Positions 1 through 18,105 of a stretch of DNA of 22,363 nt are shown piece by piece. How positions within the stretch are numbered: position 1 is the first letter of the stretch; every line of letters begins with the position of its first letter. The notes beneath the pieces were generated by a model that had not been told where the DNA came from, did not search any database, and worked only from the letters and a program-made list of their open reading frames with translations. The stretch comes from a virus: positions 1 through 22,363 of the IMG/VR virus record IMGVR_UViG_3300044451_000099; one strand, given 5' to 3'. A program made the translations under genes and the position numbers.

Positions 1-397
1 TGTTAAATCTATTTCTGAGGAACTTCGTGGTTTGGCAGTAGAACACAATTTTCCATTATGGACAGCTACTCAACTTACTCGTAGTGGTTATAATAATTCT
101 GATCCAGATATGTCTGATACTTCAGAATGTATATTTGTTGATGAAATCGTTGAAATGCGGGATGGTAGTAATAAAAAAATTTCTGAAGTGTCTGTCGGCG
201 ATCAAATTAAATCTCAAGATAATTATAAAACTATAATGATGGTTCATCATAAGAAAGATAAGGAATGTATCAAGATTACTACTAAAAACGGAAAAAATAT
301 TATTGTAAGTAAAGAACATATTTTTCCAACCAATAATGGCAGAAAGTCATTCAATTCTGGTTTATCTGTTGGTGATTGTCTTAATACTAATATATAA
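1..397 (+). CDS. 41: gp41 replicative helicase, N-terminal extein end fused to N-half of a split intein (5' partial)
   Basis: The reading frame is open from base 2, so the gene starts upstream of the window. Residues before base 128 match the C-terminal part of the T4 gp41 / DnaB-family 5'-3' hexameric helicase: a QLTRSGY segment followed by SDPDMSDTSE, which corresponds to the DnaB H3-region LSDLRES. The helicase sequence stops at TSE and continues directly into an intein beginning with Cys (base 128), running 89 residues to the stop at 395-397. The rest of the helicase (SFGLPATADMM...) resumes only at 1770 in another ORF. A functional protein therefore needs protein trans-splicing with the product of 1509-2045. 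The helicase unwinds the replication fork together with the gp61 primase encoded at 7286. Identification of the family is firm. Splicing activity is inferred from motif conservation. Confidence 0.9.
   Translation, partial: VKSISEELRGLAVEHNFPLWTATQLTRSGYNNSDPDMSDTSECIFVDEIVEMRDGSNKKISEVSVGDQIKSQDNYKTIMMVHHKKDKECIKITTKNGKNIIVSKEHIFPTNNGRKSFNSGLSVGDCLNTNI
128..394 (+). other. Split intein, N-terminal half (Int-N, 89 aa)
   Basis: Starts with the catalytic Cys (CIFVDEIVEMRDG, block A) directly after helicase residues TSE. It contains a VGDQI segment and a block-B-like segment ending VSKEHIFPT, in which the usual TxxH is SxxH as in the known gp41-1 split intein. It ends SGLSVGDCLNTNI and stop. Length and layout match the Int-N of gp41-family split inteins found in phage metagenomes (about 88 aa). 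There is no endonuclease domain in the intein itself. Confidence 0.9.
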
Positions 398-402
398 TTA
401 TA

Positions 403-450
403 AAGTCTATTGTTTTTGGTATATAAATAATAACCAGATACAATAGACTT
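403..450 (+). promoter_or_regulatory. Long hairpin between Int-N stop and endonuclease start, enclosing a late promoter
   Basis: A perfect 10-bp inverted repeat, AAGTCTATTG (403-412) and CAATAGACTT (441-450), continues inward as T413-A440, T414/T439 mismatch, T415-A438, T416-G437 and TGGT/ACCA (417-420 with 433-436). This gives about 17 pairs and a 12-nt loop (421-432). The right arm ends 7 nt before the endonuclease ATG. RNA read through from the helicase gene would fold here and cover the initiation region. RNA begun at the late promoter in the loop would lack the left arm. Confidence 0.75.
422..429 (+). promoter_or_regulatory. T4-type late promoter TATAAATA (endonuclease gene)
   Basis: Exact late promoter octamer recognised in T4-like phages by the gp55 sigma-like factor (family knowledge). 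It lies 28 nt before the endonuclease ATG at 458 and inside the loop of the 403-450 hairpin. The start of transcription would fall near 435. Confidence 0.7.
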
Positions 451-457
451 AATTTAT

Positions 458-1522
458 ATGAAAAAATATAACAGTTATGCGAATAAATTGGATTGGTTGA
501 AACGTAATAAAAAATTTTCACATTATTTTAACTATGATTTTTTTAATAAAAATACTGGGTATATTGAAGAATATCTTGATTCTATAGATGAAGTTCCAAA
601 CAGTTCCCAATTAAGAACTATCGCTTTATTATGTGATTTATCTCTTTTATATGAGAATGATATAGAACAAAAATATGATAAATATAAGTCTGAAAAAAGT
701 GTGAAGAAAAAAATAGAAATTAGATATGGTAAAGATCAACTTAACCTTTATGAAAATAAACTAAAAAATAGACCTAAACCAGTGGTAAACAGTATTTTAA
801 ATGTTAAATATTGGTTGGATAAAGGATATACAGAAATAAAAGCAAAAGAAAAAATATCAGAAATACAATCAAATAATTCTAAAAAACGACACGAAAAAAC
901 ATTTAATTATAAAATACAAAATCCAATCTGTGTTGAGTATTGGAAAAATCTTGGTTTTGGTGATAATAATGAAATCAAAAACTTAAGAAAACCTTATTTA
1001 GATAAATGCTCTAATACTTTAAGTAGATATATTGTAAAATATGGTGAAAAGGAGGGTAAAAAAATATTTTATAATGGAGTTAATAAAAGAATAAATACTA
1101 TGCTTGAAAGGTATGGAACTAAAACAGTCACTACATATGTTTCTAAAGAATCGTTAAAATTTTTAATAAAAATATATAAAGAAATAAGAAAAAATGGAAT
1201 AAAAAAAGAAGATGTAGTGTGGGGTATTTCTGGAAATAAAGAATTTGTTTTGACTGATAATAAACTCGGAAAAAGTTATTTTTATGATTTTGTGATTAAA
1301 AGTAAAAAAATAATTATAGAATATAATAATTTATTTTGGCATTCAAGAAAAAAAGAAGAATGGAAAGGTATTGGAGATTATGATAAAGTATTGGAGTATC
1401 AAAAGACAAAAGAAAACCTTGCCATTTCTCGTGGATATGTGGTATATTATGTTTGGAATGATGATGACATTCAAGAAAAAGTAAAGTATTTAAGTGGAGT
1501 GGTATTGAATGACGGAACTTGA
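458..1522 (+). CDS. Vsr-like (EDxHD family) homing endonuclease inserted between split-intein halves
   Basis: A 354-residue, Lys-rich free-standing ORF located exactly between Int-N and Int-C. The C-terminal part (about residues 265-345) has the Vsr-like nuclease pattern: YFYDFVI, IIIEYNNLFWHS, a D..K helix (DYDKVLEYQKTK), then a GYVVYYVWNDDD strand like the Gw.v...W ending of Vsr. The middle holds short repeated helical modules (VKYWLDKGYTEIKAKEKIS; VEYWKNLGF; VKYGEKEGKKIFYNGVNKR) that probably bind DNA. Its arrangement matches the fractured genes described from ocean metagenomes, where a split intein flanks an endonuclease of this family. The likely target is intein-free gp41 in competing phages, which would spread the unit by homing. 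It overlaps the Int-C ORF by 14 nt. Target and activity are inferred. Confidence 0.8.
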   Translation: MKKYNSYANKLDWLKRNKKFSHYFNYDFFNKNTGYIEEYLDSIDEVPNSSQLRTIALLCDLSLLYENDIEQKYDKYKSEKSVKKKIEIRYGKDQLNLYENKLKNRPKPVVNSILNVKYWLDKGYTEIKAKEKISEIQSNNSKKRHEKTFNYKIQNPICVEYWKNLGFGDNNEIKNLRKPYLDKCSNTLSRYIVKYGEKEGKKIFYNGVNKRINTMLERYGTKTVTTYVSKESLKFLIKIYKEIRKNGIKKEDVVWGISGNKEFVLTDNKLGKSYFYDFVIKSKKIIIEYNNLFWHSRKKEEWKGIGDYDKVLEYQKTKENLAISRGYVVYYVWNDDDIQEKVKYLSGVVLNDGT

Positions 1523-1769
1523 AGAAAAATGTCTATGCAGGGCAGACAAATTAATTAGATCTGGTTTTAGTGATTTGGATTTATTTGAACTATCTGATTT
1601 ACTAATTAAGTTAGAAACTGAAAAAAACGAAAAAAATCTTCTATCCGATAAAAGCATTGATTATAATGATGAGGTTGAACTCATAGAAGAATGTGGAATT
1701 AAGGAAACTGTGGATATAAGTGTATCTGGGGACAACTTATTTTATTGTAATGGTATTTTAACAAAAAAT
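1509..1769 (+). other. Split intein, C-terminal half (Int-C, 87 aa, with extended N-terminus)
   Basis: Block F/G motifs are clear at residues 67-87: ETVDISVSGDNLFYCNGILTKN, then Ser+1 of the extein. The terminal Asn (codon 1767-1769) is present, but the penultimate residue is Lys where most inteins have His. The first ~45 residues (MTELEEKCLCRADKLIRSGF... up to about LETEKNEKN) are additional to the usual 35-50 aa Int-C and are rich in charged and leucine residues. They could help the halves associate or be a remnant of a former linker. Confidence 0.85.
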
Positions 1770-2045
1770 AGTTTCGGACTTCCTGCTACTGCTGATATGA
1801 TGATTGGTATGATAAGAACTGAAGAATTAGATCAACTCAATCAAGTAATGTTCAAACAGATTAAAAATCGAGACAATGATGTGTCAATCAATAAAAGATT
1901 TGTAATAGGAATTGATAGAGCAAAAATGAGACTTTATGATGTAGAGCAAACAGCACAAGACGATATACTTGACTCTGAAAAGGAAGAAGAGTATAATAAT
2001 GAAGAAAGAAAATCTAAAAAATCATTTGAGGGGTTTAAGTTTTGA
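1509..2045 (+). CDS. 41: C-half of split intein fused to the C-terminal part of gp41 helicase
   Basis: ATG at 1509 with GGAG at 1496-1499 (9 nt spacing), overlapping the end of the endonuclease gene. Residues 1-87 are Int-C, ending VDISVSGDNLFYCNGILTKN. Residues 88-178 are the helicase C-terminus: SFGLPATADMMIGMIRTEEL followed by KNRDNDVSINKRFVIGIDRAKMRLYDVE, as in T4 gp41, and an acidic/Lys-rich tail. The first extein residue is Ser, as expected for the trans-esterification step. TSE+SFGLPATAD restores an uninterrupted gp41/DnaB core sequence. It is translated separately and should be joined to the product of 1-397. The last base pairs overlap the mazG start. Confidence 0.9.
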   Translation: MTELEEKCLCRADKLIRSGFSDLDLFELSDLLIKLETEKNEKNLLSDKSIDYNDEVELIEECGIKETVDISVSGDNLFYCNGILTKNSFGLPATADMMIGMIRTEELDQLNQVMFKQIKNRDNDVSINKRFVIGIDRAKMRLYDVEQTAQDDILDSEKEEEYNNEERKSKKSFEGFKF

Positions 2046-15655: not shown

Positions 15656-16090
15656 TTAATTATTTTCTTTGTACTTATTATTTTTTAAAACTATTTCATA
15701 TATATTTGTTCTTTCACTTACGAAAAACTTACCTTCAATATTTGTGTTATAATAATCATCAGTCATTAGAACCTCTCTTTTGAATTGTTCCATAGTTTCA
15801 TAATAACTCATAGATTTCCTATGAGGACATAGGTAAAGTATTTCTCTTGAGAATTTATCTTTACCTAAAAGTTTTACATCTTCTTTTAGTTCATCACAGG
15901 AACTAAAATAATTTCTCCAATCACTTTCTTTCTTTTTTCTTCTTCCAGTTTTTTTATCTTTTTGCCTGGTCCAAAAGTGTTTTTTGCCAATATATTTTTT
16001 ATTATTAGTTAAATTTGTTATTAGATATACAAAACCTTCCATATTTTTTGGAATGTCAATAAAATCTTCTTCATTATATTTCCATACCAT
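15656..16090 (-). CDS. GIY-YIG-type endonuclease (putative homing/site-specific nuclease)
   Basis: 144 residues and the only minus-strand gene in the window. The N-terminal GIY-YIG-type core is visible as GFVYLITNLTNNKKYIGKK (GIY replaced by VYL, YIG retained). It is followed by a basic stretch (RQKDKKTGRRKKKESDWRNY), LGKDKFSREILYLCP, and YYETMEQFKREVL with the conserved Glu, then DDYYNTNI. This form is common in T4-like phages and cyanophages, where it is a free-standing nuclease of the Seg/homing type. It converges with the 13531 gene with only one base between stops and no terminator on the plus strand until 16200, so late RNA from that gene would run antisense through it. A CATAAATA on the minus strand lies 25 nt upstream of its ATG. 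Confidence 0.75.
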   Translation of the reverse strand: MVWKYNEEDFIDIPKNMEGFVYLITNLTNNKKYIGKKHFWTRQKDKKTGRRKKKESDWRNYFSSCDELKEDVKLLGKDKFSREILYLCPHRKSMSYYETMEQFKREVLMTDDYYNTNIEGKFFVSERTNIYEIVLKNNKYKENN

Positions 16091-17477: not shown

Positions 17478-17548
17478 GCGTGATTGATGTAGTGGTAACA
17501 TTCCTCCCTTCCAAGGAGATCTCCTCGGTTCAAATCCGTGATCACGCT
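17478..17548 (+). tRNA. tRNA-Gly (anticodon TCC)
   Basis: 71 nt. Acceptor GCGTGAT (17478-17484) pairs with ATCACGC (17541-17547), discriminator T. The D arm is ATG/CAT with loop TAGTGGTAA. Anticodon stem CCTCC/GGAGA (one C-A mismatch at the base) with loop CTTCCAA gives TCC. The T arm CTCGG-TTCAAAT-CCGTG has one T-T mismatch. CCA is not encoded. It would read GGA codons, which are very frequent in this AT-rich genome's proteins. Confidence 0.9.
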
Positions 17549-17573: not shown

Positions 17574-17645
17574 AGCAGAGTAGAACAGTAGCAGTTCGTC
17601 AGGTTCATACCCTGAAGGTCGTAGGTGCAATTCCTTCCTCTGCCA
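17574..17645 (+). tRNA. tRNA-Met (anticodon CAT), initiator-like
   Basis: 72 nt. Acceptor AGCAGAG (17574-17580) and CTCTGCC (17638-17644) pair except for A1-C72. T8-A9 follow, then D stem GAAC/GTTC. Anticodon stem TCAGG/CCTGA with loop TTCATAC gives CAT. Variable AGGTC, T stem GTAGG/CCTTC (one T-T mismatch) with loop TGCAATT, discriminator A, no CCA. Much of the body (TAGA.CAGT, GTTCGTC, AGGTCGTAGG) matches bacterial initiator tRNA-fMet, and the unpaired 1-72 position is an initiator hallmark. Only two of the three usual G-C pairs remain at the base of the anticodon loop. Confidence 0.85.
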
Positions 17646-17670: not shown

Positions 17671-18105
17671 ATGGAAAAATTATTCAAACAATTGAGTGAT
17701 GCACAAGCATCACTTTTTATTTTGTTTCAAAAAACTTGGATTTATCATTGGAATGTTGTTGGATCAGATTTTCAACAACTTCATACACTCTTTGGTGAGC
17801 AATATCAAACTATGTTTGAAGAGATAGATACTCTTACCGAACATATGAGGTATTTGGGTATGAAACCAGTAAGTACATTGACTAGAATAGTAGAAGTTTC
17901 TATAATTAATGAAGCTAATAGCTCAGCTAATGCCGAAACAATGATTGGTGAATTGCGTGATGATAATATGAAATTGTGTGATATTTTTACTGATGTTTCG
18001 GAAGAAGCAGATACGCAAAAATTGTATGCAACTTCAAATTTAGTTCAGAGTATTATAGAAACTCATGGTAAATTTGTTTGGATGTTAAGATCCTTTTTAG
18101 AATAA
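17671..18105 (+). CDS. dps: Dps-family ferritin-like DNA protection protein
   Basis: 144 residues, slightly shorter than cellular Dps (about 160-170), as only a brief N-terminal tail precedes helix A. The Dps signature is clear in KTWIYHWNVVGSDFQQLHTLF and EEIDTLTEHMRYLG. All four inter-subunit ferroxidase ligands are in place: His26, His38, Asp53, Glu57. The helix pattern continues to the end. The family forms 12-mers that oxidise and store iron using H2O2 and may bind DNA. Without a Lys-rich tail, DNA binding is doubtful here. It is preceded by an exact late promoter, so the protein may protect phage DNA late or be carried in particles. It overlaps the next possible ATG (18105) in TAATGG. 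Confidence 0.85.
   Translation: MEKLFKQLSDAQASLFILFQKTWIYHWNVVGSDFQQLHTLFGEQYQTMFEEIDTLTEHMRYLGMKPVSTLTRIVEVSIINEANSSANAETMIGELRDDNMKLCDIFTDVSEEADTQKLYATSNLVQSIIETHGKFVWMLRSFLE

What the first reader, a model, noticed from the sequence alone, without database searches (positions are those of the whole stretch)
1..2045. Fractured gp41 helicase: split intein halves separated by a Vsr-like homing endonuclease gene
The helicase gene ends in an Int-N, the endonuclease ORF follows, and an Int-C fused to the rest of the helicase comes next. Joining TSE to SFGLPATAD restores an unbroken gp41 core, so the DNA-level break must be repaired by protein trans-splicing. The site differs from the known gp41-1 split intein (exteins TRSGY/SSS): here TRSGY continues uninterrupted into NNSDPD, and the intein sits 12 residues further on. 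This position aligns with DnaB RE|SG, two residues from the Ssp DnaB intein site. It may thus be a distinct gp41 split-intein allele.
Basis: partly seen in the sequence, partly recalled or inferred. Interest (0 to 1): 0.85.

Follow-up and report, generated by a model that had tools for sequence, protein, structure and literature searches.

The report
Phage helicase gene split by mobile intein
A marine T4-like phage has its essential replication helicase gene cut in two by a mobile DNA-cutting gene, and the two protein halves carry a split intein that should join them back together; this kind of broken gene has been known since 2009, but this family turns up at one exact site in dozens of phages, in one cultured T4-type phage, and in helicase genes broken into three pieces.

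Summary
Bases 2-397 encode the 3' part of gp41 helicase ending ...TSE plus an 89-aa Int-N (128-394). A 354-aa EDxHD/Vsr-like endonuclease follows (458-1522), then Int-C fused to SFGLPATAD... (1509-2045). A contig 99.96% identical to an occupied relative on both flanks lacks exactly the 1,642-bp insert. I found the same arrangement in 44 non-redundant Int-C loci. All sit at the same (E/D)|S site, with Cys1, block-B His, terminal Asn and +1 Ser invariant and an unusual penultimate Lys (44/44). No intact gp41 was found in contigs up to 100 kb or in one complete isolate genome. Inteins and endonucleases that are 97-100% identical occur in helicases only ~65% identical, so the cassette is mobile. 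A hairpin holding a T4-type late promoter precedes the endonuclease in 22 of 24 loci tested, as for I-TevI. The kind is known ('fractured genes', Dassa et al. 2009). It is not the gp41-1 site: in two contigs both inteins occur 12 residues apart, so gp41 is made in three pieces; other contigs pair it with a split intein in the P-loop. Cultured Tequatrovirus ESh36 carries an unannotated member. Trans-splicing is inferred, not shown.

The parts
2..127 (+). 3' end of the N-extein coding part of gp41 (DnaB-like replicative helicase), ends ..NNSDPDMSDTSE; gene is cut by the contig start
   Evidence: PHROG 19 match to profile 481-523, E=3.6e-15; joined extein aligns to 8DTP chain A, E=9e-23
128..394 (+). 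Int-N, 89 aa, Cys1 at 128-130, block B ..SKEHIFPT; stop codon 395-397
   Evidence: TIGR01445 intein N-terminal region above curated cut-off; 6QAZ gp41-1 intein E=1e-13; C1 and block-B His invariant in 40/40 non-redundant relatives
403..450 (+). inverted repeat (stem AAGTCTATTGT / ACAATAGACTT with further inner pairs) between the Int-N stop and the endonuclease start
   Evidence: fold z=-6.0; hairpin enclosing the promoter in 22/24 HEN-bearing relatives; 6 of 17 pairs with changes on both sides in a 10-sequence alignment
422..429 (+). TATAAATA, T4-type late-promoter-like motif in the loop of the hairpin
   Evidence: 10 copies in the window, all on the + strand, 3.7 expected on both strands; present in the loops of relatives
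458..1522 (+). free-standing EDxHD/Vsr-like homing endonuclease gene, 354 aa, putative catalytic residues E262, D277, E288, H295
   Evidence: These residues are invariant in 16 diverse relatives; profile hits Vsr 1ODG/1VSR/1CW0 E~0.02 and 3R3P mobile intron protein E=0.13; DUF559/Vsr Pfam hits in relatives
1509..1655 (+). conserved N-terminal extension (about 48 aa, predicted helical) of the Int-C polypeptide; its gene overlaps the 3' end of the endonuclease gene by 14 bases; GGAG ribosome-binding site upstream
   Evidence: conserved in all relatives, also those without endonuclease; dN/dS 0.33; helices 3-17 and 25-47 at pLDDT about 80 in a model that is poor overall
1656..1769 (+). Int-C core, ends GILTKN; terminal Asn, penultimate Lys in place of the usual His
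   Evidence: 6QAZ gp41-1 intein E=0.005; N 44/44, K 44/44; dN/dS 0.15
1770..2045 (+). C-extein: C-terminal part of gp41 helicase, starts with +1 Ser, SFGLPATAD..
   Evidence: PHROG 19 match to profile 522-597, E=1e-17

Best explanation
This is a fractured gp41 gene. A mobile cassette of 1,642 bp sits exactly between the codons for Glu and Ser in the DnaB motif-4 region of the phage helicase. It consists of the first part of a split intein, an EDxHD (Vsr-like) homing endonuclease gene with its own control element, and the second part of the split intein. The two helicase polypeptides are made separately. Int-N and Int-C bind each other and, by the class-1 route (Cys1, Ser+1, C-terminal Asn), ligate ..TSE to SFGLP.. 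to give full-length gp41. The endonuclease probably cuts gp41 genes that lack the insert, so that repair copies the cassette in. On transcripts running through gp41 the endonuclease start region is folded into a hairpin, and a late promoter in its loop gives transcripts that lack the 5' arm, so the nuclease is probably made late, as for I-TevI. Shown by sequence: anatomy, exact insertion site, conservation, horizontal movement, empty allele. Inferred: splicing, cleavage, timing.
For: The two halves cover the helicase profile without gap. L003 and L014 are 99.96% identical over 2,622 and 2,544 bp and differ only by the 1,642-bp insert at GAA|AGT. 44 non-redundant Int-C loci, all at (E/D)|S, with C1 40/40, block-B His 40/40, terminal N 44/44, S+1 44/44. 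Purifying selection on Int-N (dN/dS 0.23), Int-C (0.15), extension (0.33) and HEN (0.43). No intact gp41 in complete ESh36 or in contigs up to 100 kb. Mobility: L005 and L038/L084/L085 share 98-100% Int-N and 97% HEN (dS 0-0.10), with N-exteins only 64-67% identical and synonymous sites near saturation. Two contigs have a 12-residue middle extein between two split inteins, which cannot work as a free peptide. EDxHD core invariant. Hairpin with late promoter in 22/24; the I-TevI precedent is in PMC2988022. No group I or II intron in the window.
Against: No splicing or cleavage experiment exists for this family in the papers held. The penultimate His is Lys and the block-F His is Asn/Gln throughout, so the C-terminal cleavage step must be assisted differently. 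The HEN assignment rests on weak profile scores and motif conservation; its structure model was too poor for a fold match. The window lacks the 5' part of gp41 and its genome is incomplete. A clear Shine-Dalgarno in the hairpin's 3' arm is seen in some relatives, not in the window.
Confidence: 0.92

Rival explanations
1. Genes in pieces without splicing: the two helicase halves assemble non-covalently, as for the NrdA halves of phage Aeh1 split by mobE, and the intein remnants are dead.
For: A phage precedent exists in which an endonuclease splits an essential gene that works as two peptides (cited in PMC10448857).
Against: All nucleophiles and the terminal Asn are invariant and Int-C is the most constrained segment. 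Int halves persist in 15 loci without the endonuclease. A 12-residue middle extein in L011 and L126 would be useless unspliced.
Confidence: 0.04
2. Pseudogene: the helicase is inactivated here and an intact copy or host helicase takes over.
For: The window is a 22-kb fragment that cannot exclude another copy.
Against: In the near-identical L014 the same locus holds the only gp41 seen. ESh36 (complete) and 11 long contigs hold only the pieces. Extein dN/dS is about 0.26.
Confidence: 0.02
3. RNA-level repair: the insert is a self-splicing intron or is bypassed by the ribosome.
For: EDxHD-type endonucleases also occur in group I introns (I-Bth0305I).
Against: No intron family matches in the window. 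The insert ends coincide with Cys1 and Asn|Ser+1 of an intein, and both parts are open frames under purifying selection.
Confidence: 0.01
4. Assembly or sequencing artefact.
For: The data are metagenomic contigs.
Against: The identical insert occurs in contigs of three other samples (L002, L003, L043) and the same architecture in a cultured phage (ESh36).
Confidence: 0.01

Closest known systems
Fractured genes with split inteins and Vsr-like homing endonucleases (Dassa et al. 2009, Nucleic Acids Res 37:2560; paper not held, content from memory, cited by several held papers)
   Same: Conserved replication enzyme broken by a split intein with a free-standing endonuclease gene between the halves; endonuclease related to Vsr; mainly phage; gp41 among the hosts
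   Different: Whether the E|S site was among those loci could not be checked. New here as far as held papers go: near-isogenic empty allele, HEN-less split relatives, three-piece helicases, a cultured Tequatrovirus member
gp41-1 split intein (PDB 6QAZ)
   Same: gp41 helicase host; Cys1/Ser+1; similar Int-N length (88-89 aa); detectable sequence relation (E=1e-13 for Int-N)
   Different: Sits 12 residues upstream at Y|S, goes with a GIY-YIG endonuclease in the loci seen here, has HN instead of KN at the C-terminus and lacks the 48-aa Int-C extension; both co-occur in L011 and L126
Ssp DnaB intein
   Same: Same motif region of DnaB-family helicases; weak Int-C match to 1MI8 (E=0.44)
   Different: Cis intein, reported insertion two residues further on (from established knowledge)
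I-TevI/td intron control element (PMC2988022)
   Same: Hairpin masking the endonuclease start region on read-through transcripts, late promoter placed so that late transcripts lack the 5' arm
   Different: Here it lies inside a split intein instead of a group I intron, and drives an EDxHD enzyme; timing is not measured
I-Bth0305I, EDxHD homing endonuclease (PDB 3R3P)
   Same: E-D-(x)-H core in a Vsr-like nuclease domain
   Different: Intron-encoded; only weakly matched here (E=0.13)

Membership tests
Fractured gene (split intein + free-standing HEN) | enzyme coding region broken in two at an intein with the HEN gene in between | tested here: met
Fractured gene (split intein + free-standing HEN) | no intact copy of the host gene in the genome | tested here: met
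   ESh36 complete genome and 11 long contigs; not testable for the window's own incomplete genome
Naturally split class-1 intein | Cys1, block-B His, C-terminal Asn, +1 Ser/Thr/Cys | tested here: met
   invariant in 40-44 non-redundant loci
Naturally split class-1 intein | penultimate His and block-F His (common, not universal, so not strictly defining) | tested here: not met
   Lys in 44/44, Asn/Gln in 44/44; other inteins splice without the penultimate His (references listed in PMC4031507)
Naturally split class-1 intein | protein trans-splicing activity | not testable with these tools
   needs expression
gp41-1 intein allele | insertion at TRSGY|SSS | tested here: not met
   site is (E/D)|S, 12 residues on; both inteins co-occur in L011 and L126
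EDxHD (Vsr-like) homing endonuclease | conserved E-D-x-H core | tested here: met
   E262, D277, E288, H295 invariant in 16 diverse members; the final Asp is not invariant and is not obvious in the window
EDxHD (Vsr-like) homing endonuclease | Vsr-type fold | tested here: inconclusive
   profile E about 0.02 to Vsr; AlphaFold model too weak, no fold match
EDxHD (Vsr-like) homing endonuclease | cleaves the intein-less allele and promotes homing | not testable with these tools
   indirect support from transfer between diverged gp41 genes and the empty allele
Group I intron | intron covariance model match | tested here: not met
   Rfam finds only two tRNAs in the window

The most novel reading that the evidence does not exclude
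The E|S split inteins are a separate, phage-only family marked by a penultimate Lys and a conserved extra module on Int-C. With a second, different split intein in the same gene (at Y|S in L011 and L126, or in the P-loop in L101, L112, L118, L120 and probably L147) they make natural three-piece helicases, assembled by two independent trans-splicing reactions, in two cases with a middle piece of only 12 extein residues. Such natural three-segment assembly has not been described in the papers I could search.
Probability: 0.55. Interest if true: 0.72.

Novelty: new member of a known kind. Interest (0 to 1): 0.5.

Why it matters
The same break at one exact codon junction in dozens of phages, with a near-isogenic empty allele, forms with and without the endonuclease, and a cultured Tequatrovirus carrier, makes the proposed route from endonuclease invasion to permanently split intein testable in a T4-type phage. 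The family is also a source of split inteins at a different junction (SE|SFG) with an unusual C-terminal active site. Genes that carry two of them are natural examples of the three-segment protein assembly that engineers build by design.

Tried and rejected
Group I/II intron: Rfam negative. Structure prediction of the endonuclease and of the Int-C ORF with the available alignments gave poor models (pLDDT 70 and 56), and Foldseek found nothing, so fold evidence is not used. The Int-C extension has no significant Pfam match. Int-C relatives in bacterial and archaeal genomes: none found, consistent with a phage-only family. The key paper (Dassa 2009) and the gp41-1 structure paper are not in the library, so prior knowledge of this exact site could not be excluded. 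Contiguous (cis) inteins at the E|S site: none seen among the loci of five viral-contig scans.

Full report
What is there. The window starts inside gp41, the DnaB-like replicative helicase of a T4-like phage. Reading frame 2-397 carries 42 extein residues ending ..NNSDPDMSDTSE and then an 89-residue Int-N starting with Cys at 128; 458-1522 is a 354-aa ORF; 1509-2045 is a 178-aa ORF that ends an Int-C at Asn 1767-1769 and continues as SFGLPATAD... PHROG 19 matches the halves at profile positions 481-523 and 522-597. The joined extein aligns gap-free with the solved T4-type gp41 helicase (8DTP, E = 9e-23). Int-N and Int-C match the gp41-1 intein structure 6QAZ.

Exact insertion and empty allele. 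IMG/VR contigs L003 (occupied) and L014 (empty) are 99.96% identical over 2,622 bp upstream and 2,544 bp downstream and differ only by a 1,642-bp insert between the Glu and Ser codons. The insert is thus a discrete element. Identical intein proteins occur in contigs of several samples, so it is not an assembly artefact.

A family with one site. An alignment-based scan gave 62 loci, 44 non-redundant. All lie at the same place: -1 residue Glu in 38 and Asp in 2 of 40, +1 Ser in 44 of 44. Cys1 (40/40), block-B His (40/40) and terminal Asn (44/44) are invariant. The penultimate residue is Lys in 44/44 and the block-F His position is Asn or Gln in 44/44. A scan with Int-N added further diverged members, again at (S)E|S. 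None was found in the collection of 84,980 bacterial and archaeal genomes. The Int-C polypeptide always has an N-terminal extension (87 or more residues from Met to Asn in the loci listed, against 36 for the gp41-1 type), also where no endonuclease is present.

A cultured member. Shigella phage ESh36 (Tequatrovirus, ON528746) carries the same arrangement at ..SDIAE|SAGLPATAD: Int-N, a diverged Vsr-like endonuclease and an Int-C ending GILTKN. Of 584 records with a similar gp41 region it was the only one in which a single place covered most of the query, insert included, and no other phage record matched its insert beyond 34 bases of flank. The paper that reports the phage does not mention an intein or helicase (PMC9686686). 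Escherichia phage teqskov shows the empty site with 97% identical flanks. A profile search of the whole ESh36 genome finds only the two gp41 pieces; eleven long contigs of the family up to 100 kb likewise hold pieces of one gp41 only.

The endonuclease. Sixteen diverse members share invariant E262, D277, E288-Y289 and H295, the EDxHD/Vsr core. A profile reaches the Vsr structures at E about 0.02 and 3R3P at 0.13; single members reach DUF559 at 5e-5 and Vsr at 0.01. Each of these is weak alone, but they agree. The final Asp of the motif is not conserved in all. Structure prediction did not help.

Mobility and selection. L005 shares 98-100% Int-N and 97% endonuclease identity (dS 0-0.10) with L038, L084 and L085, while their helicase N-exteins are 64-67% identical with dS above 2 or saturated. 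The cassette has moved between strongly diverged helicase genes. All its parts are under purifying selection: median dN/dS 0.23 Int-N, 0.15 Int-C, 0.33 extension, 0.43 endonuclease (a rough Nei-Gojobori estimate). Fifteen of 40 loci lack the endonuclease yet stay split; L011 lacks the Vsr-type endonuclease of L018 although its window-type Int-N is nearly identical. This fits the idea that endonuclease invasion breaks an intein and the break persists, though the order of events was not reconstructed on a tree.

Control element. Between the Int-N stop and the endonuclease start lies an inverted repeat with TATAAATA in its loop. TATAAATA occurs 10 times in the window, all on the coding strand, with 3.7 expected, as for T4-type late promoters. 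In 22 of 24 endonuclease-bearing loci tested a hairpin encloses this motif or a one-mismatch form; the stem sequences differ between lineages, and a transcript starting just after the motif would be nearly unstructured. In an alignment of ten, 6 of 17 pairs have changes on both sides. This is the published I-TevI layout (PMC2988022). L096 and L101 have the motif but no hairpin, and ESh36 has neither in this form. In the window itself no clear Shine-Dalgarno lies in the 3' arm, so masking of the start region is inferred.

Three-piece helicases. In L011 gp41 is encoded as: N-extein to TRSGY + gp41-1-type Int-N; a GIY-YIG endonuclease; gp41-1-type Int-C + 12 extein residues SSSDPELTDTSE + window-type Int-N; window-type Int-C + C-extein. 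L126 has the same order with both a GIY-YIG and an EDxHD endonuclease. In L101, L112, L118 and L120 a split intein with a very short Int-N (about 15-20 residues) interrupts the P-loop (AG|TGxGKS) and the E|S split intein follows; L147 shows the P-loop Int-C half; L121 has the P-loop intein in one ORF. The 12-residue middle extein is the strongest sequence argument that both inteins splice.

How it most likely works, step by step. (1) The two gp41 polypeptides are translated from gp41 transcripts, the second from its own ribosome-binding site (GGAG before 1509): inferred. (2) Int-N and Int-C associate and splice by the class-1 route: inferred from invariant residues. (3) The nuclease is made late from the promoter in the hairpin: inferred from anatomy and the I-TevI precedent. 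(4) It cuts empty gp41 alleles and the cassette is copied: inferred from the empty allele and the transfer pattern. Alternatives (non-covalent halves, pseudogene, intron, artefact) are each contradicted by the data above.

Known or new. The arrangement was named 'fractured genes' by Dassa et al. 2009, a paper that is not held here; it is cited for this in held papers. gp41-1 and gp41-8 are established tools. I could not check whether the E|S site was among the 2009 loci, so I file this as a new member of a known kind. What appears new in the papers searched is the ESh36 member, the near-isogenic pair, and the recurrent three-piece genes.

Noticed in passing
L011:148-3255 (IMGVR_UViG_3300005512_003673); L126:333-4405: gp41 in three pieces: gp41-1-type split intein at Y|S and window-type split intein at E|S, 12 residues apart, with a tiny middle extein
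   Followed up: yes
L118, L120, L112, L101 (and L147 Int-C half only): P-loop (AG|TGxGKS) interrupted by an atypically split intein with an Int-N of only about 15-20 residues, upstream of the E|S split intein; L121 has a contiguous version
   Followed up: partly
L082 (ON528746.1, Shigella phage ESh36) 1494-4474: Unannotated fractured gp41 in a cultured Tequatrovirus; the record is flagged UNVERIFIED and annotates two 'primase/helicase' pieces
   Followed up: yes
L034:2-2001 (IMGVR_UViG_3300043420_001024): uvsX-like recombinase gene also fractured by another split intein next to a fractured gp41
   Followed up: no
L048:3-1896; L026:1-903: DNA polymerase gp43-like pieces behind an Int-C (..LVHN|SIYLCM, ..CVHN|SNYLNF), in L048 preceded by a Vsr-like endonuclease ORF
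   Followed up: no
L156 and L157, 2007 onwards: A gene that reads like DnaE-type DNA polymerase III alpha, also broken by a split intein (..NYSFNK|CIFEEE.. and ..GFVTSN|SHSVSYS)
   Followed up: no
window 1509-1655 and all relatives: Conserved, predicted helical extension at the N-terminus of Int-C of unknown role, kept even without the endonuclease
   Followed up: partly
window 13321, 13627, 15067: Recurrent motif W(V)..LL.EGYDLS.YTW in large ORFs downstream (also in L011), function unknown
   Followed up: no
window 15656-16090 (-): SegE-like GIY-YIG endonuclease on the opposite strand (Pfam SegE_GIY-YIG)
   Followed up: no
window 17478-17548 and 17574-17645: Two tRNA genes directly upstream of a ferritin-like gene (17671-18105)
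   Followed up: no
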